Part shown: positions 5,181 to 44,149 of the stretch, piece after piece
Layout of the letters: each line of letters starts with the position of its first letter
How positions within the stretch are numbered: the first letter of the stretch is position 1
Assembly (NCBI GenBank): GCA_907163375.1
Contig: CAJQUW010005291.1
Span: 1 to 64,000 of the forward strand
From: Prostheceraeus crozeri
Lineage: Eukaryota; Platyhelminthes; Polycladida; Euryleptidae
DNA length: 64,000 nucleotides
Direction of reading: 5' to 3'
Notes under the pieces: generated by a model
Seen by the model: the letters and a program-made list of their open reading frames with translations, nothing else
What the model was told of the DNA's origin: nothing
Databases searched by the model: none
Position numbers and translations under genes: made by a program

Positions 5181-5185
5181 TCATT

Positions 5186-8860: not shown

Positions 8861-8869
8861 TTGACATTT

Positions 8870-12700: not shown

Positions 12701-12704
12701 CTAT

Positions 12705-13554: not shown

Positions 13555-13840
13555 CACTGTAAACTCTAGCGGCACGAAATTTTGCTTGAATTAGGCACGA
13601 AATTTGGGCATCAATTCCAACCAACACAACGCACGAGTAGGCACGAAGTTCATAGTGCCGAGTTCGTGACCATTGATTTTTCCTTCGATTTCATTGGATA
13701 AACAAATACATGATTTGGTGCCTATTAGTGCCTACGTGGCGCCTACTGGTGCCTCGAGGCACTAGAAAGGCACTAACTAGGCGCTAATTGGCACGAAATT
13801 TTGGCTTCGTGCCTAAATTGGTGCCCTACAGTTTACAGTG
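13555..13840. mobile_element. CACTG-type MITE, 286 bp, TA target duplication, copy A
   Basis: Ends are CACTGTAAACTC and TACAGTTTACAGTG with TA on both sides (13553-13554 and 13841-13842). The interior is packed with GGCACGAA, TTCGTGCC, GGCGC and AGTGCC words. Ends and subterminal repeats match the 8.57 kb unit at 2062-10629, so both probably use the same transposase. Present at the same place in copy B (43863-44147), hence older than the duplication. Confidence 0.8.
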
Positions 13841-13842
13841 TA

Positions 13843-21652: not shown

Positions 21653-23981
21653 TAGTCTGGCAGCCAGAACGAGTTTCTGCAGGGAACGAGGCCGAAAGTG
21701 AGACTTTCACAGAATGATGTACACCCTATGCCTACTACAAATTCCTGCCGAGTTCTAGTGAGTTCCTCTTCTTGTCAGACAGGATCAAAGAAAAACACAT
21801 GTAAATCCAATTGGACGCAGATTGCAGCTTTTGGCTAAAATGAAATTTTGTATGTTTTCTCTGATTAAACGAAAAGTACTAAGCCCAGAGTAGTCATAAT
21901 TTTTGACATGGAATGTCTTCAGGTCATTTCTTTTCATCTTCATTCACCCCTGTCTATATTCATATTTGGCGAGCCTCTTAATGTTGGCAGCCACAAACAT
22001 TTTCAGCAACTTTATCCACATTCAACCACATTCTCACATCCATTGCTGATTAGATGCATGATAAAAGCACGTGCACATCATAGGAAATGACCTGAAGACA
22101 TTCCATGTCAAAAATTGTGACTTCAGGGTTAGCACTTTTCGTTTAATCAGAGAAAACATAGAAAATTTCATTTTAGCCTCAAACTGCAATCTGCGTCCCA
22201 TTGGATTTACATGTGTTTTTCTTTGATCCTGTCTGACAAGAAGAGGAACTCACTAGAACTCGGCAGACGTGCCGTTTCGCAGTAGGCATACGGTGCACAT
22301 CATTCTGTGAAAGTCTCATTGTCGGCCTCGTTCCCTGCAGAAACTCGTGCTGGCTGCCGGACTATGAGGTGTACATCATTCTGTGAAAGTCTCATTGTCG
22401 GCCTCGTTCCCTGCACAAACTCGTGCTGGCTGCTGCCGGACTATGAGGTGTACATCATTCTGTGAAAGTCTCATTGTCGGCCTCGTTCCCTGCAGAAACT
22501 CGTGCTGGCTGCTGCCGGACTATGAGGTGTACATCATTCTGTGAAAGTCTCACTGTCGGCCTCGTTCCCTGCAGAAACTCGTGCTGGCTGCTGCCGGACT
22601 ATGAGGTGTACATCATTCTGTGAAAGTCTCATTGTCGGCCTCGTTCACTGCACAAACTCGTGCTGGCTGCCGGACTATGAGGTGTACATCATTCTGTGAA
22701 AGTCTCATTTTCGGCCTCGTTCCCTGCACAAACTCGTGCTGGCTGCTGCCGGACTATGAGGTGTACATCATTCTGTGAAAGTCTCATTGTCGGCCTCGTT
22801 CCCTGCACAAACTCGTGCTGGCTGCTGCCGGACTATGAGGTGTACATCATTCTGTGAAAGTCTCACTGTCGGCCTCGTTCCCTGCAGAAACTCGTGCTGG
22901 CTGCCGGACTATGAGGTGTACATCATTCTGTGAAAGTCTCATTGTCGGCCTCGTTCCCTGCAGAAACTCGTGCTGGCTGCTGCCGGACTATGAGGTGTAC
23001 ATCATTCTGTGAAAGTCTCACTGTCGGCCTCGTTCCCTGCAGAAACTCGTGCTGGCTGCCGGACTATGAGGTGTACATCATTCTGTGAAAGTCTCATTTT
23101 CGGCCTCGTTCCCTGCACAAACTCGTGCTGGCTGCTGCCGGACTATGAGGTGTACATCATTCTGTGAAAGTCTCATTGTCGGCCTCGTTCCCTGCAGAAA
23201 CTCGTGCTGCTGCCGGACTATGAGGTGTACATCATTCTGTGAAAGTCACATTTTCGGCCTCGTTCCCTGCACAAACTCATGCTGGCTGCCGGACTATGAG
23301 GAGTACATCATTCTGTGAAAGTCTCATTGTCGGCCTCGTTCCCTGCAGAAACTCGTGCTGGCTGCCGGACTATGACGTGCACATCATTCTGTGAAAGTCT
23401 CATTGTCGGCCTCGTTCCCTGCAGAAACTCGTACTGGCTGCCGGACTATGAGGTGTACATCATTCTGTGAAAGTCTCATTGTCGGCCTCGTTCCCTGCAC
23501 AAACTCGTGCTGGCTGCCGGACTATGAGGTGTACATCATTCTGTGAAAGTCTCATTGTCGGCCTCGTTCCCTGCAGAAACTCGTGCTGGCTGCCGGACTA
23601 TGAGGTGTACATCATTCTGTGAAAGTCTCATTGTAGGCCTTGTTCCCTGCAGAAACTCACTCTGGCTGCCGGAATATGAGGTGTACATCATTCTGTGAAA
23701 GTCTCATTGTAGGCCTCGTTCCCTGCAGAAACTCACTCTGGCTGCCGGAATATGAGGTGGACATCATTCTGTGAAAGTCTCATTGTAGGCCTTGTTCCCT
23801 GCAGAAACTCACTCTGGCTGCCGGAATATGAGGTGGACATCATTCTGTGAAAGTCTCATTGTCGGCATCGTTCCCTGCAGAAACTCGTGCTGGCTGCGCG
23901 GACTATGAGGAGTACATCATTCTGTGAAAGTCTCATTGTCGGCCTCGTTCCCTGCAGAAACTCGTGCTGGCTGCCGGACTA
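21653..23981. mobile_element. inverted-repeat element with a one-sided tandem array
   Basis: A left arm (21653 to about 21940) is the reverse complement of 22083 to about 22370, around a 140 bp spacer. The outermost part of the right arm, a unit of about 76-79 bp, is then repeated in tandem to 23981, where the end GCCGGACTA mirrors TAGTCTGGC at 21653. AGT on each side (21650-21652, 23982-23984) could be a 3 bp target duplication, but this is weak. No coding sequence; open frames inside the array are repeats read through. Confidence 0.65.
22300..23981. repeat. tandem array, about 22 units of 75-79 bp
   Basis: Each unit contains CATCATTCTGTGAAAGTCTC, GTCGGCCTCGTTCCCTGC and AACTCGTGCTGGCTGC. 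Length variation comes mainly from one or two copies of a CTG triplet (GGCTGCTGCC or GGCTGCC) plus point changes (TGCAGAAAC or TGCACAAAC). I count 22 occurrences of CATTCTGTGAAAGT in forward orientation between about 22301 and 23914, a mean period of about 77 bp. Confidence 0.95.
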
Positions 23982-24534: not shown

Positions 24535-26930
24535 GACTAAGACGACTTTTGCCAGAATGTGGTAAAAACAGCCTATAACTAGATGTCTATGATTTTTTGT
24601 CAAACGATCGACTAGGAGTTAAGGTATTAACTCAGGCAAGACCTGAGAGGGTCACTATATGTAGCAAAGCCATTTACATTTCTTCATTGACTGTACTATT
24701 TAATATCATTCTACATAATGATCAACAGATGATTTTATCTTAATTTATAATTTCTCGGCCCTTTCAACTGTTTGAGACAAGATTCGACTTCATCGCCGCC
24801 TGTTAACCAAGTTATGGAAGTCAATTAATGCCCTCGAAAGCATCTTCTAATGAATTAACGATAGAATGAAATGAAATAAACGATGTGCAAATCGCCATGC
24901 AAAAGATGTACGGCTGGCAGGATTTGAGCCGATGACCCAAGCATCTTGTAAATGCAATTAACAAATAAAATAAGCGATAGATCCAGCTGCCATGCAGAAT
25001 GTAATTCTAGGCAAAAATGATGATGTCGATACACCTCTTCAAGTCTAAGAAAGAACAATATTTATTAGAAATCGCCGGAAGCTCGGTTGCATCAAGGAAT
25101 GAAATTTTGGTAGAACAAAGAATAAAAAGTATAAAATGTGTAGTTTGCAATGGCAAATTCTTGTAGCTATCTTCGTGATAAAGTCTTTGTTATAATGCGA
25201 GGCTAATCGCCACAAAAGAAAATCCTCTGGAAGCTGCACAACTGATTGACCTTGAGAGGGGAAACAATATTTATGATTGCTGACATCTCATCGATGAGCA
25301 GTGGCCACATAAATGGTAGTTGACAAAACTCACATACATTGCAGCATTCATATTTCTTCGCAGTTTTTAAATTTTAAAATTCCAACACCCAAAATGTCCG
25401 AAGACAATGGCCGCTCAGCACATTTTGCCTATTCAGGCGTGCAACGAGTGACTAAAGAAATGCCCATTAGACCTGAAGATGTCTGAATGATCGGACGAAA
25501 GGCATCTAGCGAGCATTGACTTCTGATCTTTTGTGTGTCGTTGTTGGGATTTCAGAAATTACAAAATTATTATGTTCCCCTGAACGGAAGTTCGTATTTG
25601 TCTGAAAATGATGTACATTATACAATTTACGCATGTGGTAGATGAAATGTAATAGTAAAACATGTTCTGATGGTTTGAGTCCAATATAGCAATGGCATCA
25701 TCAATAACATCACCTTCCGGTAAATTCTTCGTTTTAACTCAGTAAATTTGTAGAAACCTTGGACATATTGCTACACGCACGCACGTTTTTGCAGTCACTG
25801 AATGATCATTTTTGGCATTACCGAATGAAATTATGAAGCTGCATGCTAAAAGAAAACACAAAGCCAAATTCATCGAAATTTTGAGGCAAAGCTCTTCCAC
25901 TTCATATGGAGGCGAGTGTATTTAATAGTCAGTAATTTGCTCACTTGTTATTATCAAAACAAGGAAAGAGCTGGAAGTCTTCGTAAAACGCAGATAAACA
26001 GTGAAGTTGACGTGGTCGTAAAGTATTTTTGCTTTTCAGTTTGGCTTGAATTCAGCAAAGCACTTGTTATCCCTGTGATGTGACATGTTTTACTGCGATG
26101 TATCTTGCGCTGCGCTTTCGGTCAAATATGCTTCATCGTACCAACTGTCAAAAAGCTTCTCATTATGCTGCTGATCCCATTCCTGTTTTGTTAAAACCCT
26201 TACTTTACCAAGAAAAAAAGTAATATGGTTTACCATGGGGTGCGATCCACCCCAATTCACAATCAGTTGTTGTAAATGCTTTTAATCAATCTTAGCAATA
26301 TTTTCATACTAAAAGATTTTCGAACACTGTTGAATAGTGCTAGAAGCCCGAATAAAGCAGTCAGTTTTCGCAAGTTTTTGTTTTAATTGAATTAAAGTTA
26401 ATCACCGTTTCGGAAAATCCTTCACCTGCTGACTGGCATTATATCACCTGCATACGTTCTCCTTCTAAAACGATTTGTGAAAAGTTTGTCTGTATATAGC
26501 GGTGGGTATGTCAAGAAAAAGTGAGTATGAATTTATTGGATTCTGACTATAATGGTATTTACTGTACGAAGTATCAGGAAACTCTAATTTATCTTGAAAA
26601 ACTAAGTGACTATTTGTAAGATAATCGACTGATGTAACGGCAGATCTTTCTAATCCTGAAATTTTAATCTTTCGAAGGGTAAACAGGCGCATCCTAACTA
26701 TACACATACCTGACTCTTACATTTGTAATTGAGAAAATATGATTTTAGATTAGAAATAATATAATGGAAAAAGGTAGGTCGACTCAGAACTCGACCCTGT
26801 GTCATGCTACTTCATGGTCTGTATGCCATGGAATCTTATCATAGAGTCCTAGCAATTTATTACCTATATCTAACTTGTCTGCATTTTTCATTTCTCATGT
26901 ACATTTGATTAAAATTACTACACGTCAAAT
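24535..26930. other. no gene seen; one weak tRNA-like fragment
   Basis: Mostly AT-rich with no recognised domain. On the minus strand at about 24905-24930 GGCTCAAATCCTGCC resembles a box B / T-arm, and a possible box A-like TGGCAGCTGGA lies about 80 bp upstream, which could mark an old tRNA-derived SINE. It does not fold as a full tRNA, so it is not called as one. Near 26215-26260 GTTTACCATGGGGTGCGATC followed by CACCCC resembles a piggyBac end and could be the 5' terminus of the piggyBac element whose gene begins near 26930. Confidence 0.35.
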
Positions 26931-27212
26931 ACTGGAGAGAAAAGTTACGGAGTAGAAGAAGCATTAGAAAGACTGTTTCAGCAGATCTCATCAGATGACG
27001 ACTACGAAGGCGACGAAACTCTGGATAGTGATGTTGATGACATAGTCATCGATAACCCAACAACAACAGTATCTGATCATTCTGACGAAGACAGTGTAGA
27101 CGACACTGATAGGATAATTGAATCCATGGTGGCTGAAATCCATGAAGATTACAATACGATGAAATCTCGCAGTGGCTCTGAGAAGTGGTACCGCAAACCA
27201 CTACAACAAGGC
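26930..27212 (+). pseudogene. piggyBac transposase N-terminal part, interrupted
   Basis: The frame reads an acidic N-terminal region (SSDDDYEGDETLDSDVDD and more) and then SRSGSEKWYRKPLQQG, the start of the piggyBac DDE_Tnp_1_7 domain (GxxWxxxP motif). It is cut at 27212 by the 4.64 kb element and resumes at 31856. The last four bases, AGGC (27209-27212), are duplicated at 31856-31859. No convincing start codon was defined; the upstream boundary is approximate. Confidence 0.75.
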
Positions 27213-27780
27213 ATCAAGTTTTGGATTAAAAAAATATACCATGAGCGAAACCAATTTTTTCACGATCTATGACCTCTTCGGACAAAATAATCGCAAAAAT
27301 AAAAATATTTCAATGTACAGATTTTTTACAAATGAGCTTTTTCAAAATGGCCGCCCTTTTTGCGATAAAATCGTCAAGTTGTACATTAGAATGACTTTTC
27401 TGCCTTGTTAACTCACTCCAGCTGCTCAAATATCTCAAAAAATATTATCCAGCAAATGGCATAGCGTTTAGCTCATAACGGAATATCTATTTTTCATTCA
27501 TAAGTAGTATATTATCGACATGATGCTATTTTCATAAAAAGGAAAATATATTTTTATTTTTTAATGAAACAAAAAGTCATTCAGTTATTAGCGTTCCATA
27601 AAGGCATTAGATCACATGTTGTCATTGAATTGATGGATTTAAAAGGAAAACCATGTCTTCAGCTAGCAGTTATCAACTTAAATTTGACTGCAGGAACATT
27701 TATGAAAATAATTATAATAGTATTTATCTCAACTGTAACTTAACTTCATACATGACTGTGACGGCGGTTTTTTGATATTC
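27213..27780. repeat. left terminal inverted repeat
   Basis: Begins ATCAAGTTTTGGATT and ends GGTTTTTTGATATTC. It matches the reverse complement of 31286-31855 apparently without mismatches in the stretches compared. Confidence 0.9.
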
Positions 27781-28065
27781 ACCCTTGAAACAGTCGTTAA
27801 TCAACTAATAAGGATATCTTGTTTGAATCATCAAATATTTCTGTGCATTATCAGTGTGTTACACGTCATTCACAATCAAAAATATCTGGCATGGAAGACA
27901 CAGGTTTGCAATGTTTTTCCTATATCATGGTCAGTATTTGACTAGCGCCATCATGTGATAGTTCGCTTACTATGACTCATACTTGCATTCAGGCATGATT
28001 TGAATTTGAACTATGTGGCAGTGATATCTGACGAATTTGAAATTAGTCTCACATTAATGCTTGGA

Positions 28066-31000
28066 ATGGCTTCCGCTGGTGATGATCTTGTCTGTGCCGA
28101 GAAAAATCGTAATGAAAATCGCAAGAAAGTGTGCACGGTGTGCTACCGTAAAGGAAAGCGGGGTATTTCTGAAAGTGACATGAAAAGCATCCAGGAGTTT
28201 GTTATTGACGGTTATACGATGGAAGATGCTAATTTTCCAGAGGCATTGTGCAATGGCTGCCATATGTTGCTTTCTAAGAAACGACGTGGATATGATGTGA
28301 CTTTTCCGTTGATTTCTGACTACAACCCTAATCGACCGATAATACTTCGATCAACCACAATTTGCACCTGTCGTATTTGTTTGGTTGCTCGCGCCGATTT
28401 GCAGGAAGCCAATAAGATGAAGAAAAAAGCTGGTCGTCCTCAACAACATTTCAGTGCCACATCCGAGACTCCACCTAGTTTTAAGGTATGTAGCCTTTGT
28501 TTTTCAAAATTATATCCAGGATGTTCCCACTCGAGAGATTCTTGTCGATCAAAGCGCCAAAGAATTCACAATATTGATAAATTATATTAGTTTCCCCCGC
28601 AAAAATCACTAAACAGCGGGTTGCATCGCGCATTATTGATGATGTTGGAACTTCACTGTCTACATTGAGTGGTAAGAATAAAAATATTTCATTGAAAACC
28701 CTAATGATAGTCTCCAGCTTTCGGTTGATGATATATCTCATATTCAAGATGACTTGAATCTTAGTAGTCGACAACTGTTTAAAATGAGCAGAGATATTCG
28801 TTGTGCTTCCCAATCTCGATTTGTTATTGAGCCAGGTCTTAAAGAGCGAATTGTTATTACTTCACACGAAATTGATGACTTATTCACCGTCGAAAAATTG
28901 GATTTCATTTCAATGGTCAAAGATGAGGTTGTCGACCGGCATTCAAAGTATGTAGTCTTCTGCAACGATGTAGATCAACTGATAAGTAGAATAAAATCAA
29001 AAAGGGGACTAAACAGTGACAATATGCTTATTCGAATCGGAATTGACGGAGGAGGCGGATTTTTAAAAATTGGACTGTCTGTCTTTTCAGTTAATGAACA
29101 AGACACTACTCCACATTCTTCACGCCGTAATTTCGTGTCAGGTTTGACATACCAGTTCAAAGACTCCGGGGTTAAGCGCAGTTTTATTCTTGCTTTAGTA
29201 CCCGACGTGCAGGAAAATTATAATAATGTGAAGCTTCTTTGGAAAACTGGTCTGCACACTATGGCAGAATCCTTCGTTGTTGCATGTGACTTGAAACTTT
29301 GCAATATACTCCTTGACCTTATGCCACATGGCAGCAAGCATCCGTGCAGCTGGTGAAACTGGTGAAACTTCTGAGAAGGGAAAACTAGAGACTGAGGGTC
29401 CGCCGAGGACACTTTCATCATTAAATAACCAATTTTGGAAGTATTTTGAGACCGGTAAAGATAAACGTAGAGCCATGCAATTTTACAATGTTATTCACCC
29501 CACAATCATCAAATTTACATCAGATCCTTCAACTCCCATCATTGAGCTGATTCCCCCTCCTGAACTTCATTTGCTCTTCGGACCAACTGCCACTCTTTAT
29601 TCGGCTTTGGAAAAAGAGTGGGACCAGGCGCATCTTTGACTTCGTGCTTGCAATGTCCAGAGAAGCCCAGTACATGGAGGAAGTTTTTCTGGGAACAGTT
29701 CAAGACAACTCTTGCAGAATGTTGACCGACTTGAGAGCATCTGCCCAAGAGAATCAGTGATTCTGGAATACGTCAATGCGTTCCGTTGTTTCAACGAAGT
29801 CGTCAGTTCGTGTTATGGTCTAGTGTAAGACCCTGATTTCAAAATAAAAGTCTTGGCTTTCAAGGATGCATGTAGCAAGCTATCGTTAAATATTACCCCT
29901 AAACTACATGCAATTTTTTTCCACATTCCAACTTTCTGTGAAATGATTGGACGAGGGCTGGGACATTATAGCGAACAAGTGATAGAATCAGTGGCGGCCC
30001 ATCCATATGGGCGCCTGGGGCGCAGCCCTCCATTAGATAATACACCAAAATTAACATAAATCATCATCAAGTTAAATGAACGCTAACTGAACTGTCAATG
30101 GCTCAACCTGTCCAATATCCAAGAATGCCCAAACACATCAATCAAAGCGCGTTTCAAGTGACTCAGACGTCATCGTCCCTATGTCTCGTGGATGGGGCCC
30201 ACAGCAAATGCGCCTCGCTTCACACAGGTTTTGCTGATCATACATTTGCATACATCAAATATTTCCGGCTGCATCACACGCGTAAATTGTGCTGAGATGG
30301 GGCGCTCTCACGATGTCCCTCTGGTACAGTTTCGCGCATTCTTATTAGTTGTAACGCTGTAGTGTGTGTTGGGAAGTCAGACTAACGTCAATTTTATTAA
30401 ACATGTGCAAGCATTGCAGACTGTCGTCGAAACGCATTCGGTCACTTTTCATTGATGTCTCTCGTGTAGATTCGATTGAAATTCAATCAGATTGTTTTTC
30501 TCAAGAAAGACTTTATTTCAGCATTTCATACAAAGAAAAATTCGTATTAAGAAGTATTGACTCACCAAGGTTACGAATAATCAGGAATCACGTTAACGTT
30601 TAACAAAACCTTGTTTGTAACCTTCCGAATTTCAAATGAAAAAGTTGCTCAATAGTTTTGACACATTTTTGCCTTGAAAGCCGATTTAGCTTTAAAAAAT
30701 TGTGAATAATTTGAAATTAAATTGAATGAAGGAACTTTATAGTGATTTTTTATTTCAATTACTTGTTGCGAATTCAAACATATTTTCCATTTTTGCTTAA
30801 TTGAGAGTCCTTATTATAAAAATAATTCTTTATTATTAAGGCATCGCAGTTAGCAAATGGAACAATTCCATTTTTCCATATCATAATTAAACACTTTGAT
30901 GTAAGTCTAGGCTTACATGTATAACTAATAATAATTGTAGTATGTATAGTTAGCTGCAACTGAGACCATATTAGCCTGAGGTTAAATAATGAAGTTTGGA

Positions 31001-31163
31001 CTGCGCCCCGCTTGAGCTGAACTGTACGAGCCGCCACTGGATAGAATCATTGCATCACAGTTTCAATGATGTATGGAAAACCTTCAAAATTCAAGACCAG
31101 CATCCTCAATTTCTTAATCGATTACAGCGATCAGTCTGTGTATTTAATGTTAGACATTTTTGA
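28066..31163 (+). pseudogene. RAG1-like transposase, decayed and split by a hAT element
   Basis: Pieces at 28066-28590, 28618-29356, 29340-29637, 29760-29988 and 31048-31163 read in order but in shifting frames. The N-terminal part has CxxC pairs (VCTVC, LCNGC, CRIC) and then KKAGRPQQHF, close to the GGRPRQHL nonamer-binding motif of RAG1, then CSLC-x-CSHSRDSC. The core has IDGGGGFLK (first Asp, compare CDGMGD in RAG1), ACDLKLCNILL (second Asp), HPCSW with TGA where a Cys codon is expected, PPPELHLLFG, and KLHAIFFHIPTF-x-GLGHYSEQ. The last has the H-x4-H and downstream SE spacing of the RAG1 HKTLAHVPEI...ASEGNE segment. Several frameshifts and stops plus the insertion make it inactive. Neighbour copy at 34827-37036 is better preserved. 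Confidence 0.75.
29989..31039. mobile_element. hAT-type nonautonomous element, 1,051 bp, 8 bp GATAGAAT duplication
   Basis: Ends CAGTGGCGGC and GCCGCCACTG flanked by GATAGAAT at 29981-29988 and 31040-31047. The 8 bp duplication and CAGxG...CxCTG ends are hallmarks of hAT elements. Removing it restores the transposase frame: the codons for EQVIES continue directly into LHHSFNDVWKTF at 31048. The interior is AT-rich with no transposase. Confidence 0.9.
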
Positions 31164-31285
31164 TTACGAATTAGTACACTACGATTTCATGATTTGAGCA
31201 AGTTGTTACTTGATTAACGATCGTGTTTTTACTTTTCCTCATGTACATAGGCCAACATACTATTGATACATAGTACTTGAGGGGA

Positions 31286-31855
31286 GAATATCAAAAAACC
31301 GCCGTCACAGTCATGTATGAAGTTAAGTTACAGTTGAGATAAATACTATTATAATTATTTTCATAAATGTTCCTGCAGTCAAATTTAAGTTGATAACTGC
31401 TAGCTGAAGACATGGTTTTCCTTTTAAATCCATCAATTCAATGACAACATGTGATCTAATGCCTTTATGGAACGCTAATAACTGAATGACTTTTTGTTTC
31501 ATTAAAAAATAAAAATATATTTTCCTTTTTATGAAAATAGCATCATGTCGATAATATACTACTTATGAATGAAAAATAGATATTCCGTTATGAGCTAAAC
31601 GCTATGCCATTTGCTGGATAATATTTTTTGAGATATTTGAGCAGCTGGAGTGAGTTAACAAGGCAGAAAAGTCATTCTAATGTACAACTTGACGATTTTA
31701 TCGCAAAAAGGGCGGCCATTTTGAAAAAGCTCATTTGTAAAAAATCTGTACATTGAAATATTTTTATTTTTGCGATTATTTTGTCCGAAGAGGTCATAGA
31801 TCGTGAAAAAATTGGTTTCGCTCATGGTATATTTTTTTAATCCAAAACTTGATTC
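31286..31855. repeat. right terminal inverted repeat
   Basis: Reverse complement of 27213-27780, ending AATCCAAAACTTGATTC before the AGGC duplication at 31856-31859. Confidence 0.9.
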
Positions 31856-33020
31856 AGGCGCACCGTGAAGGAGGAAGGGCAGGAATTCATAATATCATTC
31901 GAAATCAAAGTGGTCCTACTAAGCATGCTCAAAGACACTGTGGTTCATCACGAGGAAGCCTTCAAATTATTCATTTCTCCCAATCCTGTTCAAAATATAG
32001 CTGAATGCACCAATAAGGAAGCTAGCGAGCATACACATACTTGGAAAGAAACAAATCTAGAAGAACTATATACTTTTTTCGGTCTGTTGCTTCTTGATGG
32101 CGCTTTGCATGAGAACAAAACACCAGAAATGGCCAGAAATCCATTCACTCAACTTCTACGTTATCTTCGATTTGATTGCCGGAGTGAAAGAAATTCTCAA
32201 GACAAATTTGCACCTTTGCGCCGTATTTTCGAAGAAATTGTGACTAAATTTCGAGCTAACTATTCCCCTGGATCTGAATTGACTGAAGACGAACAGCTTT
32301 TCAGTTTCCGAGGGCGCTGTCCTTTTAAAATGTTCATCCCTTCAAAGCCAGGCCGCTATGGAATAAAGTTATGGGCTTTATGTGATTCAAAAACCCATTA
32401 TCGTCTCAATTTACAGCCTTACGTAGGAAGAGTTGTCAGGTTCCGGAAAGAGGTCAAGGTCAGCGTGTTGCACTTCAATTGACCGATTTCTACACAGGAT
32501 CTGGCCGTCACATCTATATGGACAATTTTTTACAAGTTTGCAGCTTGCAAGAAATCTTCTTGGACGTCAAATGACTATGACGGGCACCATTCGTCGTAAT
32601 AAAACCGAATTCCCTTCGGAAATTATGCCTGATTCAACTCGGCAACAATTTACCAGTGTATTCGGATTTCAAGACAAAGCAACAATTGTTTCCTACGTCC
32701 CGAAGAAAAATAAAGCAGTCATTCTTCTGTCAACCAACCATCACAACATCGACATTTCAAGTGATGAGTCAAGAAAACCTCAAATCATTCTTGATTACAA
32801 TAAAGGAAAGTGCGGTGTGGACACACTAGACCAACTGGTGCGAAAAAACTCATTCATGGATTACCACAGTCGTAGTCCCCATTTTCAACTGAGGATTGAA
32901 CTCAATATTTGATTATTCTATTTACATAGAATACGTTCTTGGCAATTTGAAGTGCAATTCATGTTGACCGGTGTGAACGCTCAACAGTCCTTTTATGAAC
33001 TACTAAATAATTGTAATTTC
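31856..33020 (+). pseudogene. piggyBac transposase, main part after the insertion
   Basis: Continues the gene cut at 27212. An early frame holds GIHNIIRNQSGPTKHA, the piggyBac HNIxR...GP motif. The next frame (to 32482) holds ECTNKEA, LEELYTFFGLLLLDGA, TEDEQLFSFRGRCPFK (first Asp), PSKPGRYGIKLWALCDS. A further frame (32433-32912) holds IYMDNFFTSLQLARNLL (second Asp), GTIRRNKTEFP and GVDTLDQLV (third Asp). Fragments near 32960-33020 (LTGVNAQQSFYELL) match the C-terminal region. All three catalytic aspartates are present, but at least two frameshifts plus the transposon insertion kill the gene. It is diverged from the copy at 28-839. Confidence 0.85.
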
Positions 33021-33099: not shown

Positions 33100-34826
33100 A
33101 GTTATAGAAAATCATTTGATAATGGTCTTCAGGACCCCAGGCTGTTGCTTTTTCAAATCCAAAATCAATGTGTTGTAGCCGTCAACTAGTCATCTAAATA
33201 TTCTGAATTTCGTGAAGCTTGGTCAAGTCCGCATGATTGCTTCAGGTGGTGGAAGTATTAATTTGGTACTTTTATTCTGTAACTTTATTAATAAATGCTA
33301 CTTCATTGTTATATATTATTTTGTATCCGTTTCATAAAGACCTGTTCTGGATCAACTATTCATTTCGATTTGAATCTATTAGTTGTTCAATACATGAAAT
33401 TGTAAAATTTTAATATCCTTTCGGGCAGTTCTAATTTTTGGCGGCCGTTGTATGATTCCATAAAATATACTCTGACCATTTATTTTTCCATAGACATCGA
33501 ATTGCTTTTACGATTGTGTGATTGAAAAAATCATCCATCTCCGGCATTGCATCTGTATAACTCATGAACACAAGTTTCGAGATAGCAACCACATCATAGA
33601 AATTGCATCGTCATGCATGACCACAATATTTTAGCAAATCCACCAATAGGACTTTAGATGAACTGAATGCAGATTTCTATTCAAATTGCTGTTGCTATAA
33701 ATGCATGCCTTCACTCATTTGAAATAGCTATTTACGCGAGAAGTGCAAAGTATCCATCTTTATAGCATTTTTCGTGATCAACATGTCTATACACGAGCCC
33801 GAACATGTCTATGCAAGTAGATTGCAATTTTTGGTAAAAATGAAATATTCTGTGTTCTCGCTTAGGGGGGCGGTGAAGAGTGAATACAGAGCGCTTAGCG
33901 TGGCTTACGGGAGATGAGACAGCTCCCATTGTTAAGTCTTGATGTATGAGGCGAAGTTTGTGTAAAGGCGGATTACATATTTATCACACAGCGATTACAT
34001 CTTTATGGGATTCGAGGATGAACAGGATCTGTTTACTTGTGGGAATCGAAAAGGCACAGATTGATGTACAGGATTTGTTTACATGTGCGGATCGCAGAAA
34101 GCATACTGTATTTATTGATGGGATGAATTTAATGACAGGATCAGTTTACATGTGGGAAACGCAACAATTGAATGATGTCTGATTTATCTTTGTCACATAT
34201 CTTTCAAGACATATCATTACCTATTCAGTATTTTGTCAGCCACTATGTGTGGGACCCCGCTCGTCCGGGTTTGAGTGTTCAGGTTAGGGGTCGAAACACA
34301 ACTAGACGAGTACCTGCTGATGACTGACGGACTGCAGTATTATGTTTTATATCCCTTAATCGGTAGCTGAAGTAGTGGTCGATGTATTGTAATTCAAATG
34401 AAGAAATGTGGAATTACATGAAGTACTATAGACGGATGAAGAAACTGGCCATAACAAATTCAAGTGAAGAAATAGTATTTTCCATGTGTAGTCTTAGGTA
34501 TATAGCGTGTATAGTTTCATTGCTTTCGGTGTAGTAGAGTGTCATTGTAGTTCTATTGTTTACCTCCATCATCCACTTTGTGTAGTGTCAGATGTAGTAC
34601 ACTTATAATCGGTGTAGTAGCATCGTTGTATTTCCATGTTTTACCTCCACTTTTCCAATTTTTATTCATCGGTCTCCTGTTGTTGTTTTATAATATCCAT
34701 TTCTAATTTCCTTAACCTATGGTGACCATTGTCTTATTCTATTTCCACTATCAGAATCTGTAGTCGGTACAGTATATTAGACGTCTGTTTTGAACGTGTA
34801 TACGGCAGTGTTTGGAATCTATGGTA
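33100..34826. other. no assigned gene; degenerate tandem repeat at 33945-34165
   Basis: About 33945-34165 contains three or more degenerate copies of a unit with ACAGGATxxGTTTACATGTG and GGAxxCGCA, spaced about 48-68 bp; the open frame through it is a repeat artefact. The rest (33100-33930 and 34190-34826) has no recognisable coding or RNA signal beyond the candidate exon at 33494-33634. Confidence 0.45.
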
Positions 34827-37036
34827 TTAGTATATTAACAGCAAGAATGAGTAGTAAAACTCTCCTGCTTGTTCTGAACATCGTCCCAATCCTTCGTTGA
34901 ATCTCGCACAAAATTGAGGAACATGCCAGATAACGGCATATAGTTTGGGCGTCACGTTGACATCCAAATCAATGTATGCCATTTTGAAGTTGTTGATGTC
35001 TTCGAGGTAGGATGACTTCAGCTCCCATCCGAAGCATGATTCAACAACCTGTAAAGTGAATAAAAGGCTACATATACACCAGTACAGTTTTTAGTGAGGC
35101 TTCGCTGAAAAGGTTCACGAAATTGTTTATGAAATAATGAGCTCTGAAAATATTGGTGATGCAGTAGAAATGAATTTCGAAATAAAGTTTAAAGTTTGGA
35201 CTAGGTATTGCATCTTAGTAATCGCATAAACATAATGAATAAAACAAATTACATACCTGTGAAAACATCGGAAGTCAAAAACATCGAAAAAACATCTAAC
35301 GGCATCAACATAATAACATAAATTGCTTGCTTACCTTTGAAAAACATCGAAAGGCTTTGACGTCTGGCAGACAATGCAAAGACAATGCAATGGGCACATT
35401 GATTGGAGCAAGTCAATATTAGAAAGGAGTTTCATGCAGGAATTTCCAGAGAAAGAGCCACTATGGTAGGATTTCCTTTCAATGTGCAATCTTTCGCTCC
35501 ACGCCATTGAATGCGGCCAAATTTTGGACATATATTTGAAGAGTGTATTCACAACTCCGAGCAGTAAATGTAATTCCGGAGGTGGTATGACTTGTATCAC
35601 ATCTATTCCGAGATCACTGCATTTGATTATACTCGGATGTATCACATTTTCATAATGCTTAGTCATCTTTTTGTCTTGGCATTTTCCGTGATAAGACCAA
35701 AACGAGTCATGAATTGACTGAAATGAGCGTGCCTGACCAGACACATGCAAACTATCTTTCCTTGCCGTGCACCAGCAGCAGGGAAAAGTCGCACCATGGG
35801 ACATCAGTCCAAGCAAACAATTCGCAAGTTTGAGATCACATGAAATTGTCAATTTCTCATTGCTAAAATCCAGATCGTTCAAATTTGCTGATACCCATAG
35901 TTTTAAAATATTTGGATAATTCACTTGTACATTTTCAGATAAAACGACTAGAAAAATATGCTTCACTCCTGTGTCTTTATATCGCCCATTGTAGTTTTTA
36001 TCAGAAACTGACAAACAAATTTTGAGGAAAGAGCCTCCACCGTCAATGTAAATTTTGATGTAGTAGTCACCACGATCTATGCCTCTCCTTTCAAATATGA
36101 AATCAATTAACTGTCGTACATCTTTGCAGACAACAGCAGGAGTAAGCTCTACGCCTTTTACAACATCTTGCTCCATGACACAGAAATCAATCATTTTTAA
36201 CGTGAAGTAGTCATCAAAACAATGATCGGTAGCATACAAGTGATGGTCTTCCAAATTCGGTTCAATCTTGGTTGATGCTCTTCTCAGCTCATGGCGCAAT
36301 TTCAAAGATTGACGGCTGCTAAAATTCATTTCAGATTGAATATTGGTAATATTCTGACACGAAACCCGAGCATTGAAATCGTTCGTAGTTCCACGGGAAA
36401 GCTTCAAGGGACGGCCGCCTTTAGGCGATGTCAGCAAGAAGTCATCATCATCGGACTCTTGAATGTAAGAGTGCACAACTTGTTCAGGCAATTTCTTATT
36501 CTTTTCCGCCGAATTCAGTAATTGTTTAACATTCGTCAGAGCTCCGGAACGAGAGCAGTTGTGTGGTTTTCCCTTACCTATGTCTGATAAGCACAAGCTG
36601 CAAAGTTTCAAGCTGGTTGGTCTGGAGCTACTACTTTTCTCTTGTGTTGATGGTCTTCCTGGATTGGGTTTGATATTAGTTAACCTGGAATTCTTAGAAC
36701 TGACGGATGCATTAGTTTTGGAAATAGTACAAACAAGATAGTCACAATTTGTATATCTTGACCTGGTATGATATTGATGCCGACCAACCTCACTATGATC
36801 AATTTTCGAGTAAATTTGCCATTGGCGTAATCACCCAAAACCAGTCGACATGTTCCACATATAACCGTTGGTAGTCTCCAGTCATCGCGATCAAATCTAT
36901 GGAAAACAAACTCGGAAATCAAATTGTATTGCCTGTCTGTGATACATCGATTGTCCTTGCCACATTTATTGAAACATATCAAGCAGACCTTTTGCAAACA
37001 TTCCTTGTGAGTTGATGCATGATGAGCATGAGCCAT
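34827..37036 (-). pseudogene. RAG1-like (Chapaev-like) transposase, near-intact, two coding blocks and one intron
   Basis: Reads from ATG at 37036. The N-terminus has CxxC pairs (VCLIC, ICGTC, CDYLVC) as in RAG1-N-like proteins. A one-base shift at about 36803 leads into a long frame with NPGRPST, LKLCSLC-x-HNCS, KGGRPLKL, IDGGGSFLK (first Asp), SCDLKLANCLLGLM (second Asp), CCWC, PPPELHLLLG and HSGSFSGN. An 11 bp tandem duplication (AGACAATGCAA twice, about 35366-35388) shifts the frame again before FSK and a donor AAG|GTAAGC at 35335. A 286 bp intron (35049-35334) ends TTTACAG, and the second block (35048-34827) continues VVESCFG...NVTPKLYAVIWHVPQF...GLGRCSEQ. The first histidine of the H-x4-H pair is Tyr here. 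The C-terminal tail after SEQAGEF diverges from the family. No flanking inverted repeats like those of the 27-32 kb copy were found. Confidence 0.7.
35049..35334 (-). other. intron in the RAG1-like gene
   Basis: Donor AAG|GTAAGC and acceptor CTTTACAG|GTTG; joining gives AFRCFSK-VVESCFG, which aligns with the uninterrupted AFRCFNEVVSSCYG of the copy near 29775. Gain in this copy or loss in the other cannot be decided from the window. Confidence 0.7.
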
Positions 37037-37039
37037 AAT

Positions 37040-38381
37040 GTCAAACGAATGAAGAATGAGAAAGACTAATGCTTCGATCAGACTGGCTTCGATACGACAG
37101 CGGCTATCGAATAGAATAATCGAATGATCATCGATTAGTCACACGGCATAACAAACATCATTGTGTGCGTGCGTCATACTGTCCTCATCAGAAAGAGTTC
37201 TATTGTTCTGTTTTGTCGATTCGTGGTAGCGCTGTTTCCACATGTTATTACTATACTTACATAAGTGTGAAACCGATAAGATGACACTTGAAGTAATCTG
37301 AAGCTAGTCTGTATCTTATACTCTGCTGCGGTTATCATACATTTTAACACCATGTTCGTTTTCGACATAATCATATTCACCCTTCTAAAACATACCAACC
37401 CTTGTGCAGAGGATATATTCGTATTCTAAGGCAAATCAATCACCATCAATCAGATCGATATTGATCAATAATTAATATGTAACTTGTAGTCTGCTGCAGT
37501 GATGATATTTTGGATATCGTATTCGTTTTCTGCGTCATAATCTTACATCTAATCAACATTTTAAACATTCTAATATTCCATATCGTGTAATCGATCATTA
37601 ATCAATCAATCAGATCGATATTGATCAATAGCTCATCCGAAACGTATAATCGGCTGCAGTTATGATGCTTTGGATATCATATTCGTTTTCTGCCAGGTTA
37701 ATTTGCATATATTACACTATTATGACATCACAGAAGTACAAATCTACTAAATCAATCACTGCGAATTAATCAGATCAATACTGATCAATAAAAGTCAATT
37801 ATTTTTTTAAGAGCTCATTGTACGATTTTTTGCAAGCACCGTGGATACGGCAACACATCAGCGAGCGCGATTGAAGATTGACGGTATAAGTGACACTGAT
37901 ATTCATGATATTTATGATATCGTTTTGGTATAAGTGATTCCGATCGAATTGAAGTGAATTCAACATCAAGAGGTGAACTGCAAGTTTAGAGTTTTTCTTT
38001 TATCGCTGAGCATCGTATCTGTATAACTATAGTCTTGAATATTAACATTGTCAATTGTTGTGATTGGAAGTTGAATAATATTTCATGTCATAGTCATTTT
38101 AATTGAATAATTAATTATTAGAATAATTTGTTGACACTGTCTATATTGTGATTTGAACTGACAGGCTGCCCTTTAATGCAGGGTTAATTTTCCTCTTCCC
38201 AAACCGATTGTTTTTCGTATGTACAACAATTAAGTTAATCTCCAATTTTTGTGCTTATCCAGTCAATAACGAAATTCAATAATTGTTTTATTCTGATTAA
38301 TTATCTTACATGATAAATAACTAAATAACAGATTGAACAAAGATAATTTTCTTCTCATTGTTTGCTTAATCGCTGAATTAA
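37040..38381. repeat. repeats of about 175 bp and no gene seen
   Basis: Three imperfect copies of a unit with ATCAGATCGATATTGATCAA, CTGCTGCAGT and GGATATCGTATTCGTTTTCTG occur at about 37310-37800. The first is degenerate. The rest of the stretch is AT-rich with no recognised coding, RNA or structural feature. It ends where the segmental duplication begins. Confidence 0.5.
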
Positions 38382-38382
38382 G

Positions 38383-39596
38383 ATTGTCCGGGGGCTGTTG
38401 GCTCATCGAAGTCACAATTAGCACCATTTATTCAACAACAGAATAAAGCTACCTCTGTCGATCTATCTCTCTCTTATCTCTGCGTGCAGATAACACAACA
38501 GAACTCTGATTTCAATTTTTGTACAAATAGATTTATCACAGGTCTATCGAAAAAGTGGAATTGAGGTTCATCAAGGTCAATTCCAATTCCAATTCCGACT
38601 TTTCCAACTCTGGTTATGAGGCTACAAAAATGACGGGCATGTCCGCACAGTCACACAAGTGAGATAAATCACTTGGTATTTTGCTTACATGCGTGTTACG
38701 GAAGTATTTGCACATTTAGGATTTCTGACTTGTGATCAAAACACTTTCACACAAGCAGTTGATTTGACATTACACTTCGAAGATCTACCGTACATCTGCC
38801 TTCTCACTTTGATCACCTCATATTCAGCAAACAACGCAATTCTTGATATCATCATTCACTTCTTTATAAACACCTTCAAACCGAGTTGGCTGACCGCCAT
38901 TTGACTATCGAACGTAAGAAGGTGTTGGACGCCGACGGCCCGTCACGCTGTGCCAAGGTCAACTTTACTTTTACTTTTGAACAATAAAATTGAAAACTTC
39001 CAGTCAGAACCTCTTTTTAACTTGCTCCTAGTATGAATCACCTGACTCGCAAACTGGTGAACTATATATTTGACCTTACACTTCTCAGATCTACCGCAGA
39101 TTGAAACAGCAATGAGAACCGCCTCCTGGCTTGTCGGAGGATCCACATACATCTACAAGTTCGATGAATTCAGCTCAACTGACATAACCGAAATAGAGGT
39201 TTCAACATTTGCTCTCAATTCTTAAAAAATACAAATAATTCATGAAGCGAAAGACTACTGTTTCGGGAGATCAGTAATCCCTCAACTTTGCATTCACTAC
39301 ACATAGCAATAATAACGAGCAAATACTTTGTTACTCATATTTTTTGATCGATTGAATTCATTTCATAATGCGTATTTATTTTCTAATGGAATTATACCCC
39401 GACAGATGACAATCATTCAGGCTTTATGCATTCACCTATTTTTCACGTTCAGAATATTTTTATGCAATTTTGATGTCAGGAAGTTGTGTTATTGATGTAA
39501 GTAAAATCAGAGCGAAAATTCTTAGCAGAAAGATGACATATAGAAGTGAATGTATTTCTTGTTCATATCGCACACAATGTCTATTGAACTTCCTTT
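38383..39596. other. duplicated intergenic DNA with a candidate poly(A) signal
   Basis: No gene was recognised. TTTATT at 39375-39380 gives AATAAA on the minus strand about 217 bp after the stop codon of the cysteine-rich gene at 39597-40229, a plausible poly(A) signal. In copy A the equivalent site is cut off by 8.57 kb of inserted DNA. Confidence 0.5.
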
Positions 39597-40229
39597 TCAC
39601 TTGGTCAACTTCGTGCATTGACGAACACATGGTTGAGAGATCTTCATTGAGCATCGCGCATTGCAGTCATCTTGATGTTTATTTTCCGCCGTAACACATG
39701 GCTTATAGCAGGCGTCCCATTTTTGTGAGCAATTAAACTCGCAGTCTAATTTCTCCTCTCCTGTTTTCCTGCTGCATCTCGTGCGTCGGCAGACATCAGT
39801 CTTCCTGGTGCACCTCTGCGGACATTGCCGATCGTAAGTACTGCAATCAAACATGCAAGCTTCTATACTCTCCTGCATCAGACTGTTACAACCATTCAGG
39901 CAGCAAATCTTCCTTGGTCCGTCTTTGAAGCATCCGAACTGACATCTGTCGAATTGCCGTGAGCACTCTTCGGTGCATGCCCCGTTTTCCACCAATTCTC
40001 CTGATTTGCTCCAGCTGTAGCACTTTTGGCTGCAGGATCTGAAAGTTTGCAAACAACGACCATTACAAAGGATCTCTGCTGATTCCTTCCGTCTACAAGC
40101 GGCATCACAGGGAGATGAGAAATTCGAACTCCGATTATCGAAGAAACTTTGGCAGATGGAGGCGTTCTTGTGGGCAGAAATACAAGTTATTGCACCGAAC
40201 ACGATGAGCAGCAGTTTGAGAGACGTCAT
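39597..40229 (-). CDS. secreted CxxxC-repeat cysteine-rich protein, paralogue B (210 aa)
   Basis: Same architecture as the copy at 10748-11377: a signal peptide of about 19 residues and a mature chain of about 28 cysteines in CxxxC pairs, one CxxxxC (CRRTRC) and one CC. It differs at about 23 residues and by one inserted Lys near the C-terminus (CSMKISQPC). None of the differences touches a mature-chain cysteine. Changes cluster on the residues between pairs and include charge changes (VKDEA to VENGA, SQGWDACYR to SQKWDACYK). The flanking non-coding DNA appears less diverged than the protein. The acceptor TTTCTATTTCAG before ATG is conserved. No recognised family. An extracellular role is inferred from the signal peptide and disulfide density. 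This copy keeps its downstream AATAAA and is the more likely of the two to be expressed normally. Confidence 0.85.
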   Translation of the reverse strand: MTSLKLLLIVFGAITCISAHKNASICQSFFDNRSSNFSSPCDAACRRKESAEILCNGRCLQTFRSCSQKCYSWSKSGELVENGACTEECSRQFDRCQFGCFKDGPRKICCLNGCNSLMQESIEACMFDCSTYDRQCPQRCTRKTDVCRRTRCSRKTGEEKLDCEFNCSQKWDACYKPCVTAENKHQDDCNARCSMKISQPCVRQCTKLTK

Positions 40230-40398
40230 TTCTTATCTGAAATAGAAATCGATGTCAGTTAGCGGTTTCAGGCAGGCTTGTTGATGTGACGGATTTCCTA
40301 ATGAGAAGCAACTATTCTTGCACCTCAGTTTCTTTTCATTATTGATTCATTTCAATATTCTTCCATTTTTCTACATGTTCATTCTGCAAAGATCGCTG

Positions 40399-40881
40399 CA
40401 CTAGGTGGTATGCCACGTTCAATTACGCGGAATTCAGGCGTGAACCACGCGTAATTACACATGACCCCAAACATCCGTGGCTATGCGGGATATTGCTGCA
40501 ATATAAGTCATATAAGTCAGTATAGTTGGCAGTCCTGTTATATAGACTTTGCGTCTCATGTGTCTGCATGTATCAGAGGCTAAACAATGTGATAGGACCT
40601 CAATTTCATGCTCAGGGAAAACAGAACATCATCTTAAGTTAATTCATCTTAGTGGTTCAAGCGGCAGCGCAGACAACCGTAGACGACGCGCAAACTATAA
40701 ACGCTAGCCCGCGCGTATTCATAAACATTTCCCATGTTTTAACAGCATCAGATCAAGTGATTTCTGACTCTGAGTGCATCGAGTATGTACGCGGGTAGAA
40801 GAATAGAATGTCCTTAACCACGGATGTTTGGGGTGTTCCGTAATTACACGTGAATTGCGCGTTGCGGCATGTCACCTAGTG
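40399..40881. mobile_element. CACTAGG-type MITE, 483 bp, TG target duplication (complete copy)
   Basis: Ends CACTAGGTGGTATGCCACG and CGGCATGTCACCTAGTG with TG at 40397-40398 and 40882-40883. Inner arms match in inverted orientation (ACATGACCCCAAACATCCG at about 40458 against CGGATGTTTGGGGT near 40821). It contains the TATA-like elements upstream of the cysteine-rich gene. Confidence 0.75.
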
Positions 40882-41957: not shown

Positions 41958-42509
41958 ATATCGCCAACCTCTGCTATTAATGTTGCTGCTATAATGCACC
42001 ATATTTATGGGATGTGATTCAATGAAACTGCTATTATCATGCGAGTGTGCACGCTTCCTGTATTTCCATTGCACCTCTTGCTTGTCATCCCGGCTGACAT
42101 TTAAGACGTTTTTGACGTAATGTAGATTGGTCTACCACGTCTCAAAACAAGGCCGTGAAGTAGTCAGTTCATTTTCTAGTCATTTGAAATCTTTGTGTTC
42201 CTTATAACCGGAATTTGAAGCTACTCGGAATTGCAGAATACCACTTCACAGATGGTCACCTTTGAAGGAGGTGATTTGCAGGCAAAATTTAGTTAAATTT
42301 CTGCAAAATCAAAATTCCGTCAAAATCAACGATTTTGTATTTTAAATTGCTGTTTATAATGCGAAGATTTGAGAGTCATCTGCACTGTAAATATATTTCA
42401 TTCTCAATGTCGTGTAATGTGGAGCAGCATTTCAGAAGTTAGAGAGGGAAGAGACCTCCCCATCACCGTGATATCATCGCGGTTCAGAGCGCGGTCTAGG
42501 TAGGTTTGG
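41958..42509. other. no gene seen
   Basis: 41958-42140 is absent from copy A; 42141-42509 is shared with 11823-12197. No recognisable content. Confidence 0.5.
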
Positions 42510-43010
42510 TTTATTAATAATAATAATAATATGCGCACTATTTTTTCAGAATGAAAATCGTTCATTACAGAGAAATGCTTAATCATCTTTGTTGTAACGA
42601 ATTGTAGAAAGAACACATATATAAAATAAAGAAACGGCTTCGTCTATCTGTTCGTCTGGATGGCAAAATGTGTCTTCCAGATTCAGACATTGGCGGGAGT
42701 AAGTAGCTTAGTATGTGATCTTCATTTGCGATGCAGTTGAATAGCTTTAATGCCTGGTCATGCCTTCGAAGATCAAAAGCTGGCAAAGTCTCGCAATCGC
42801 ATTGGCACAACATAAAAGCTTGTGGAATCTCCTCTGTATGCGTTCTAGACGGTTCACATCTGTCATATGCAATCCTCCGAAGAGTGGACCGCAGTACTCA
42901 ACCAGAGATCTTACAAGACCAAAGTAAATTAGCATACATAAAATAATGAAATTAGCATACATATTCATGCATTGACTATCCATCTGCAAAAAGCAACTTC
43001 TCAATTTCAA
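42510..43010 (-). pseudogene. LINE (CR1/jockey-like) 3' fragment, copy B
   Basis: Counterpart of 12198-12700, with the same reverse transcriptase C-terminal motifs (VRSLVEYCGPLF, RIQRRFHKLL, CSFYNSLQQ), the same frameshift and the same (ATT)n tail. One frame differs from copy A by a single residue over 87 codons. Confidence 0.8.
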
Positions 43011-43014
43011 TTCT

Positions 43015-43862
43015 ATAAGCGCTTGCCATCAGCCCTTTACAAGCTCCATGAAACTATTATTCACTCTAACCGCCCCGCTCGGCACTAACCCTGACTTGTG
43101 AGGTACTTTTCGTAATTCTCCACACCCGCCCATCCCCCCTGCTGATCTCCCAAAACATTGCACCAATTTTACCAAGCAACACACCAATCGAACGGGCATT
43201 GAAAGTGGATTCTCAAAAACAGCATCACTTAAATTTCAAGGTCATTCCTGGGCTGATGTGAAGGTCAAAGGTCAAAACCCTCAATTTTGACAAATTTTCA
43301 TTATATCATTAAAATGACAACAAAAACTAATAAACCATGCAATAATCGAAAGATCTTGTCAAGGTGGTTAATAAAATGATGACTACTAATCGTCAGATGA
43401 TGCATTATATGAGGTGAAAGGTCAAATGATTCAAACTTTTTGTTCAACTCAAATAGCACTAAAACAGCACCTTTAATGTTTAGTTTCTGCATGTGAAGAA
43501 ACAGTCCGATTCGGTGAACTTTTATCGACACACGGAGGCTAAAAGTAACATGATTCTGCAAATTTTCAATAATTGCTGTTTGGATGCAAAGTTGAAAAGT
43601 ACAACAATAATGACAAATCGTATTTTTAATTTGAATTTCAAATTTCAAACATGCATACAATTAAGCAGATAGTTTCAAATTCTAAAACTTTGCATTTGTG
43701 AATATCTCTATATTGATAGGAAGAATCCTTAATGCATTCTCAACTTATTTCATCAAGAATTCATGCCGCCAAACATCCAAATTTAAATAGCTCTCACGCC
43801 AGAAGTATTATGCCAAATTTATCTTCCTTCGGTAAAAAAAATTGCATAGCACGTAGGTATTA
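43015..43862. other. duplicated intergenic DNA, no gene seen
   Basis: Counterpart of 12705-13554. The 119-codon minus-strand frame at 43301-43660 is not open across the same length in copy A and has no recognisable motif. Confidence 0.5.
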
Positions 43863-44147
43863 CAGTGTAAACTCTAGGGCACGAAATTTTGCTTGAATTA
43901 GGCACGAGATTTGGGCATCAATTCTAACCAACACAAGGCACGAGTAGGCACAAAGTTCATAGTGCCGAGTTCGTGACCATTGATTTTTCCTTCGATTTCA
44001 TTGGATAAACAAATATATGATTTGGTGCCTATTAGTGCTTACGTGGCGCCTACTGGTGCCTCGAGGCACTAGAAAGGCACTAACTAGGCGCTAATTGGCA
44101 CGAAATTTTGGCTTCGTGCCTAAATTGGTGCCCTACAGTTTACAGTG
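43863..44147. mobile_element. CACTG-type MITE, copy B
   Basis: Counterpart of 13555-13840 with TA on both sides. The left terminus here reads CAGTGTAAACTC (one change from CACTG), so the terminus has begun to decay. Confidence 0.75.
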
Positions 44148-44149
44148 TA

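What the first reader, a model, noticed from the sequence alone, without database searches (positions are those of the whole stretch)
27213..31855. RAG1-like transposon: RAG1-type zinc fingers, GRPQQH motif and a RAG1-like catalytic core in one element
The encoded protein has the CxxC...CxxC...CxxC N-terminal pattern of RAG1, KKAGRPQQHF like the nonamer-binding GGRPRQHL, IDGGG and CDLK acidic blocks, CxWC, PPPELH, and an H-x4-H followed by SEQ at the spacing of RAG1's HKTLAH...ASE. Having both an RAG1-N-like region and a RAG1-like core, with a 4 bp duplication, bears on how RAG1 was assembled. Chapaev/N-RAG-TP elements from molluscs and sea urchin are the nearest described relatives I know.
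Basis: partly seen in the sequence, partly recalled or inferred. Interest (0 to 1): 0.75.

Follow-up and report, generated by a model that had tools for sequence, protein, structure and literature searches.

The report
Dead Chapaev-like DNA transposon
A broken cut-and-paste jumping gene carries zinc-binding and cutting motifs laid out in the order seen in the antibody-gene recombinase RAG1; such elements are already known, and this one adds an example rather than a new kind.

Summary
The element is real. 27213-31855 has inverted arms of 577 nt, identical over the outer 568, inside a decayed piggyBac gene. A hAT-like element (29989-31039, duplication GATAGAAT) is nested in it. The transposase gene is broken. 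A diverged second copy (215 of 587 residues identical) lies on the minus strand, 37036-34830. Two motif corrections: the second Cys of CxWC is a stop in copy 1 (intact in copy 2); the first His of H-x4-H is Tyr in copy 2. With key residues required identical in both copies, the motif order at RAG1-like spacing appeared in 0 of 5000 column shuffles; looser versions were common. Profile similarity to RAG1 is not significant (hhalign probability below 2%), and both fold predictions failed. The motifs match those published for CACTA-Mirage-Chapaev-Transib transposases, but the Chapaev CAC..GTG ends are absent. The 4-bp duplication is doubtful: a 2-bp AT duplication with CA..TG ends keeps the piggyBac frame open. 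That Chapaev elements join a RAG1-N-like region to the core is already published.

The parts
27213..27789 (+). left terminal inverted repeat, 577 nt (outer 568 identical to right arm)
31277..31853 (-). right terminal inverted repeat
27213..27214 (.). left copy of candidate 2-bp duplication AT (element then starts CAAG at 27215)
   Evidence: keeps the piggyBac frame open across the junction; inferred
31852..31853 (.). right copy of candidate 2-bp duplication AT (element then ends CTTG at 31851)
   Evidence: inferred
   Evidence: closes the piggyBac frame
28066..28587 (+). N-terminal zinc region: CTVC, CNGC, CRIC, GRPQQHF hook, CSLC..C..H..C knuckle (174 aa open)
28682..29353 (+). transposase core piece with IDGGG (29042-29056), CDLK (29285-29296) and C-S-W before a stop
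   Evidence: alignment with copy 2
29358..29636 (+). transposase core piece with IPPPELHLL
29640..29825 (+). transposase core piece with GSFSGN
29829..29988 (+). core piece with TPKLHAIFFHIP...SEQ (H-x4-H and putative catalytic Glu)
29989..31039 (.). nested hAT-like element, both ends CAGTGGCGGC, 8-bp duplication GATAGAAT (29981-29988 and 31040-31047)
   Evidence: hAT assignment from ends and duplication length, recalled
31047..31160 (+). C-terminal end of the transposase after the insertion
34830..37036 (-). copy 2, a diverged relative (215 of 587 compared residues identical); no convincing terminal repeats
35334..36830 (-). 499-codon open frame of copy 2: GRPST and GGRPLK hooks around a zinc knuckle, IDGGG, CDLK, CCWC, PPPELH, GSFSGN
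26913..27214 (+). 5' part of the decayed piggyBac gene that holds the insertion
   Evidence: ORF, junction; inferred, no Pfam match on this part
31853..32912 (+). 3' part of the same piggyBac gene (DDE_Tnp_1_7, two frames)
   Evidence: E 7.6e-34 and 8.3e-13; piggyBac transposase 6x67, E 1.2e-36

Best explanation
A dead copy of a cut-and-paste DNA transposon of the CACTA-Mirage-Chapaev-Transib (CMCT) clade, closest in described features to Chapaev. When intact, one protein of about 650 residues would bind the long terminal repeats through its N-terminal zinc region and GRP hooks, cut the ends with a DDE-type RNase H core (Asp of IDGGG, Asp of CDLK, Glu of SEQ, with the C-x2-C, LH and H-x4-H elements between second Asp and Glu), and join them to a staggered target cut that leaves a 2- to 4-bp duplication. 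Shown: the arms, insertion in piggyBac, nested element, broken gene, second copy, motif order. Inferred: fold, catalytic role of the acids, DNA contacts, duplication length. The arms are identical over 568 nt while the gene has four to six lesions, so either the copy was moved recently by another copy's enzyme or the arms were made alike by gene conversion.
For: Arms identical over 568 nt. Two copies 36.6% identical (215 of 587), each with IDGGG, CDLK, PPPELH, GSFSGN and SEQ in the same order. Residue distances copy 1 / copy 2 / mouse RAG1: first to second Asp 81/69/61, first Cys to LH 74/70/68, LH to GN 44/42/57, GN to first His (Tyr in copy 2) 71/75/85, from there to Glu 22/22/22 (copy 1's reading there was joined by me). 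With first Cys, LH, second His and Glu required identical in both copies, 0 of 5000 column shuffles give the RAG1-spaced pattern (the 20% tolerance was chosen after seeing the distances). Published signatures: C(2)C, LH and H(4)H for Chapaev (PMC4079192 passages); C(2)C and H(3-4)H between second D and E, CA..TG ends in most cases and 2-5 bp duplications for CMCT (PMC12730594 passages). Neighbours are eukaryotic transposons: piggyBac and a Tc3-type transposase.
Against: No Pfam family reached its cut-off on the transposase pieces; the best was PF22113 on the zinc region (E 0.001, 19.1 of 30 bits). DUF1280, which PMC3985635 (passages) assigns to Chapaev transposases, was not listed at E up to 10, though HMMER filters drop weak hits. 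The 5'-CAC..GTG ends called invariable for Chapaev are absent. The distance from second Asp to first Cys is 19 residues in both copies and 66 in RAG1. Neither copy alone carries C-x2-C, LH, H-x4-H and E. When a residue in either copy was enough, 466 of 2000 column shuffles had the loose pattern and 147 of 5000 the RAG1-spaced one. Fold predictions failed.
Confidence: 0.8

Rival explanations
1. A true Chapaev element (a subset of the clade named above) with a 4-bp AGGC duplication, whose left end lost two bases and whose CAC termini have changed.
For: AGGC flanks at 27209-27212 and 31856-31859; Chapaev makes 3-4 bp duplications and shows C(2)C, LH, H(4)H (PMC4079192 passages).
Against: Termini are not CAC..GTG; arms identical over 568 nt would have to differ only at the very tip; this version closes the piggyBac frame within a few codons; DUF1280 not listed.
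Confidence: 0.3
2. A RAG1-like (RAGL / ProtoRAG or Transib) transposon, on the direct line to RAG1.
For: Motif order and the 22-residue His-to-Glu distance equal RAG1. The zinc region aligns with RAG1 88-235 with the C-x2-C pairs in the expected register, 2 of 100 shuffles as good. Core against RAG1: 1 of 100 shuffles as good, 2 and 1 of 100 for the two spans; the alignment ends with TPKLYAVIWHVP on ITNYFHKTLAHVP, which is the motif register.
Against: hhalign probability 0.7-1.8%, E 0.027-0.083 for single comparisons. With Cys positions fixed, 13 of 100 shuffles match the zinc region as well; against RAG1 88-400, 8 and 21 of 100. In one search the core aligned out of motif register. No RAG1 family match. 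Only 2-bp or 4-bp duplications are possible, against 5 bp for Transib and RAG (PMC8355894 passage). No RAG2-like gene was noticed, but none was searched for specifically.
Confidence: 0.08
3. A long-arm (foldback-like) element of another superfamily that merely carries a dead Chapaev-like gene as cargo.
For: Arms identical over 568 nt around a badly decayed gene; arms are AT-rich, 30% G+C against 40% for the gene.
Against: The gene fills most of the space between the arms, as in an ordinary autonomous element; gene conversion between arms explains the contrast too (inference).
Confidence: 0.1

Closest known systems
Chapaev transposons (Kapitonov and Jurka 2007) and the Aplysia N-RAG-TP element
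   Same: C(2)C, LH and H(4)H motifs; N-terminal complex zinc finger fused to the core; small duplication (PMC4411706 section 6; PMC4079192 passages). N-RAG-TP is known here only through a passage in PMC8355894, which calls it composed entirely of RAG1 N-terminal-like sequence; the original paper is not held.
   Different: Ends are CAAG..CTTG or GAATCAAG-like, not CAC..GTG; duplication may be 2 bp; DUF1280 not matched; arms of 577 nt.
CMCT clade at large, including Mirage and ESTA
   Same: C(2)C and H(3-4)H between second D and last E, CA..TG ends in most cases, 2-5 bp duplications (PMC12730594 passages)
   Different: ESTA was described in fungi with TA duplications.
RAG1, RAG1L (ProtoRAG) and Transib
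   Same: Order of acidic, C(2)C, LH, GN, H-x4-H and Glu motifs; three N-terminal C-x2-C pairs in copy 1
   Different: No significant sequence similarity with these tools, no 5-bp duplication, and a much shorter distance from second Asp to C(2)C (19 against 66 residues).

Membership tests
CMCT clade (CACTA-Mirage-Chapaev-Transib) | C(2)C and H(3-4)H motifs between second D and last E | tested here: inconclusive
   First Cys, LH, second His and Glu identical in both copies; second Cys only in copy 2, first His only in copy 1
CMCT clade (CACTA-Mirage-Chapaev-Transib) | CA..TG ends (most cases) and 2-5 bp duplication | tested here: inconclusive
   CAAG..CTTG with AT, or other ends with AGGC; one copy only
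CMCT clade (CACTA-Mirage-Chapaev-Transib) | RNase H fold with clustered D, D, E | tested here: inconclusive
   AlphaFold mean pLDDT 35.9 from an alignment of 5 rows, four of them partial
Chapaev | 5'-CAC..GTG-3' termini | tested here: not met
   definition from PMC4079192 passages
Chapaev | 3-4 bp duplication (TWA for Chapaev3) | tested here: inconclusive
   AGGC possible, AT modestly preferred; not TWA
Chapaev | Chapa zinc domain shared with RAG1 N-region | tested here: inconclusive
   C-x2-C register agrees with RAG1; 2 of 100 shuffles, 13 of 100 Cys-fixed shuffles as good; no Chapa sequence was available
Chapaev | Pfam DUF1280 (PF06918) | tested here: not met
   not listed at E up to 10 for either joined reading; HMMER filters drop weak hits
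RAG1 / RAGL | sequence match to the RAG1 core | tested here: not met
   no RAG1 hit; hhalign core probability 1.3-1.8%
RAG1 / RAGL | 5-bp duplication | tested here: not met
   only 2-bp or 4-bp candidates
RAG1 / RAGL | RAG2-like partner gene | not tested
   no dedicated kelch search; no such hit among the ORFs scanned

The most novel reading that the evidence does not exclude
An undescribed CMCT lineage, separate from Chapaev, Mirage and Transib, in which two GRP hooks flank a zinc knuckle between the RAG1-like zinc region and the core (seen in copy 2), with CA..TG ends, 2-bp duplications and very long arms: an independent branch that retained the zinc-plus-core arrangement and so could help date the fusion that RAG1 inherited.
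Probability: 0.2. Interest if true: 0.45.

Novelty: new member of a known kind. Interest (0 to 1): 0.25.

Why it matters
The origin of RAG1's N-terminal zinc region is debated: added to a Transib by recombination with N-RAG-TP (as told in PMC8355894, passage), or already fused in the common ancestor of Chapaev and Transib (PMC4411706 section 6). Elements with both parts together fit the second view, but that was already argued from Chapaev sequences. The window adds one more family, with termini that do not fit the Chapaev definition.

Tried and rejected
Searching for relatives: viral contigs by peptide patterns and DNA patterns, and genome contigs, gave no homologue. The four pattern-hit loci gave tblastn matches no better than E 0.5 (L001-L003, L001-L004). 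Phages by protein and plasmids with the left arm: no match. These collections are viral, prokaryotic or plasmid, so absence says little. DUF1280 in one bacterial genome and 14 control genomes: nothing rang, uninformative.

Structure: both AlphaFold jobs gave unusable models (core of copy 2, pLDDT 35.9; zinc region of copy 1 as a single sequence, 39.8), so no fold search was run. Profile comparison with RAG1 was weak. A text search for motif strings listed 11 papers, none relevant by title and abstract start.

Rejected: a boundary check from a paralogous empty site; the window holds a segmental duplication, but neither the element nor its piggyBac host lies in it. Other copies of the arm tip: 51 matches to the terminal 13-mer at up to 3 mismatches against 44.8 expected by chance; only the two arm tips are exact. 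An inverted pair around copy 2 (34723-34743 / 37110-37130, 21 nt, 81%) is too weak to call ends; no chance estimate was made for it.
Full report
What is there. The window is 37.6% G+C and carries transposons of eukaryotic type. The stretch 27213-31855 is bounded by inverted arms of 577 nt with three mismatches, all at the inner edge, so the outer 568 nt are identical. It interrupts a piggyBac gene: the right-hand frames match Pfam DDE_Tnp_1_7 at E 7.6e-34 and 8.3e-13, and a joined reading matches the solved piggyBac transposase 6x67 at E 1.2e-36 (that match starts to the right of the junction, so it does not test the junction itself). A 1051-bp element with CAGTGGCGGC at both ends and a perfect 8-bp duplication GATAGAAT is nested at 29989-31039, which is a hAT-type signature (recalled).

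The gene. Between the arms lie pieces of one transposase: a 174-residue zinc region (28066-28587) and core pieces up to 31160. The frame breaks near 28590 and 28680 (an intron there is not excluded) and at 29354, has stops at 29637 and 29826, and is cut by the nested element: four to six lesions. Copy 2, on the minus strand at 37036-34830, has a 499-codon open frame (35334-36830) covering the GRP hooks, the zinc knuckle and the core up to GSFSGN; its first two C-x2-C pairs lie upstream in another frame and the end of the core downstream in a third. The copies share 215 of 587 compared residues.

Motifs. Both copies have IDGGG, CDLK, PPPELH, GSFSGN and SEQ. Copy 1 has H-x4-H but a stop at the second Cys of C-x2-C; copy 2 has C-C-W-C but Tyr for the first His. 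Distances resemble mouse RAG1 except from second Asp to C-x2-C (19 against 66). As a test, columns of the two-copy alignment were shuffled. The loose pattern with a residue from either copy occurs in 466 of 2000 shuffles; with RAG1-like spacing (within 20%, set after seeing the data) in 147 of 5000; and with first Cys, LH, second His and Glu identical in both copies in 0 of 5000. A single-sequence version on the joined copy 1 gave 17 of 2000, but it relied on a Cys letter that I had added and is not used as evidence.

RAG1. Direct similarity could not be shown. hhalign of the core profile against mouse RAG1 gives probability 1.3-1.8% and E 0.027-0.039 for a single comparison. Shuffled RAG1 sequences scoring as high: 1 of 100, 2 of 100 for residues 384-1008 and 1 of 100 for 590-1008, or 2 and 3 of 100 with Cys positions fixed. 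So there is a weak signal. In one search the core aligned in a register that does not match the motifs; the alignment ends in the motif register at H-x4-H. The zinc region against RAG1 88-235 (probability 1.0%) aligns CNGC with CHDC and CRIC with CDIC, with 2 of 100 shuffles but 13 of 100 Cys-fixed shuffles as good, and against RAG1 88-400 8 and 21 of 100. PDB sequence searches listed no RAG1 or Transib chain at E up to 10. Pfam listed no RAG1 or DUF1280; the best transposase hit was PF22113 at E 0.001, below its cut-off. Both AlphaFold models are too poor to use. Such hooks are short, and I do not count them as homology.

Ends. Taking CAAG..CTTG as the ends and AT as the duplication gives an open frame through the junction (SEKWYRKPLQQGIQAHREGGRAGIHNIIRNQSGP); removing 27213-31853 with no duplication does not. 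Chance of an open frame is about one in three, and the piggyBac gene has a further frame break near 31915 (from the ORF list), so this favours AT only modestly.

What it is. PMC12730594 (passages) describes the CMCT clade by C(2)C and H(3-4)H between second D and last E, mostly CA..TG ends and 2-5 bp duplications; PMC4079192 (passages) gives C(2)C, LH and H(4)H for Chapaev, with CAC..GTG ends. The family here fits the clade and resembles Chapaev, but the CAC ends are not met, so I do not file it as Chapaev proper. PMC3985635 (passages) places DUF1280 (Chapaev) and RAG1 in one clade of RNase H-like enzymes, and PMC4411706 (section 6 and passages) describes the Chapa zinc domain fused to the core in Chapaev elements and shared with RAG1.

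How it works. By analogy with this clade (inference), the protein bound the arms, cut them and inserted the element. This copy cannot make the protein. At 0.5% divergence per arm, identity over 568 nt would have probability 0.003, so arms this alike beside a gene so damaged point to recent movement by another copy's enzyme or gene conversion between arms; I cannot tell which.

Limits. Only two copies, no host genome, host species not determined, and no Chapaev, Mirage or Transib sequences for comparison.

Noticed in passing
923-2061 / 38378-39494; 10630-11825 / 39493-40678; 11825-14957 / 42141-45282: Segmental duplication at 90-95% identity, carrying paralogous cysteine-rich, possibly secreted proteins (10751-11494 and 39600-40232, minus strand; no Pfam match); the left copy holds about 8.6 kb (2062-10629) absent from the right.
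   Followed up: partly
22292-23981: Tandem array of a 76-bp unit, 22 copies, 94% matches.
   Followed up: no
49831-50158: Tandem array of a 29-bp unit, 11.4 copies.
   Followed up: no
1-585 (+) and 45701-46285 (-): A second piggyBac fragment (DDE_Tnp_1_7, E 1.5e-24) and a Tc3-type transposase N-terminal domain (HTH_Tnp_Tc3_2, E 7.4e-13).
   Followed up: no
27213-31853: Inverted arms identical over 568 nt beside a transposase gene with four to six lesions; the contrast is unexplained.
   Followed up: partly
27281-27299 / 27357-27375, mirrored at 31691-31709 / 31767-31785: A 19-nt inverted pair inside each arm (79% complementary), a possible transposase binding site.
   Followed up: no
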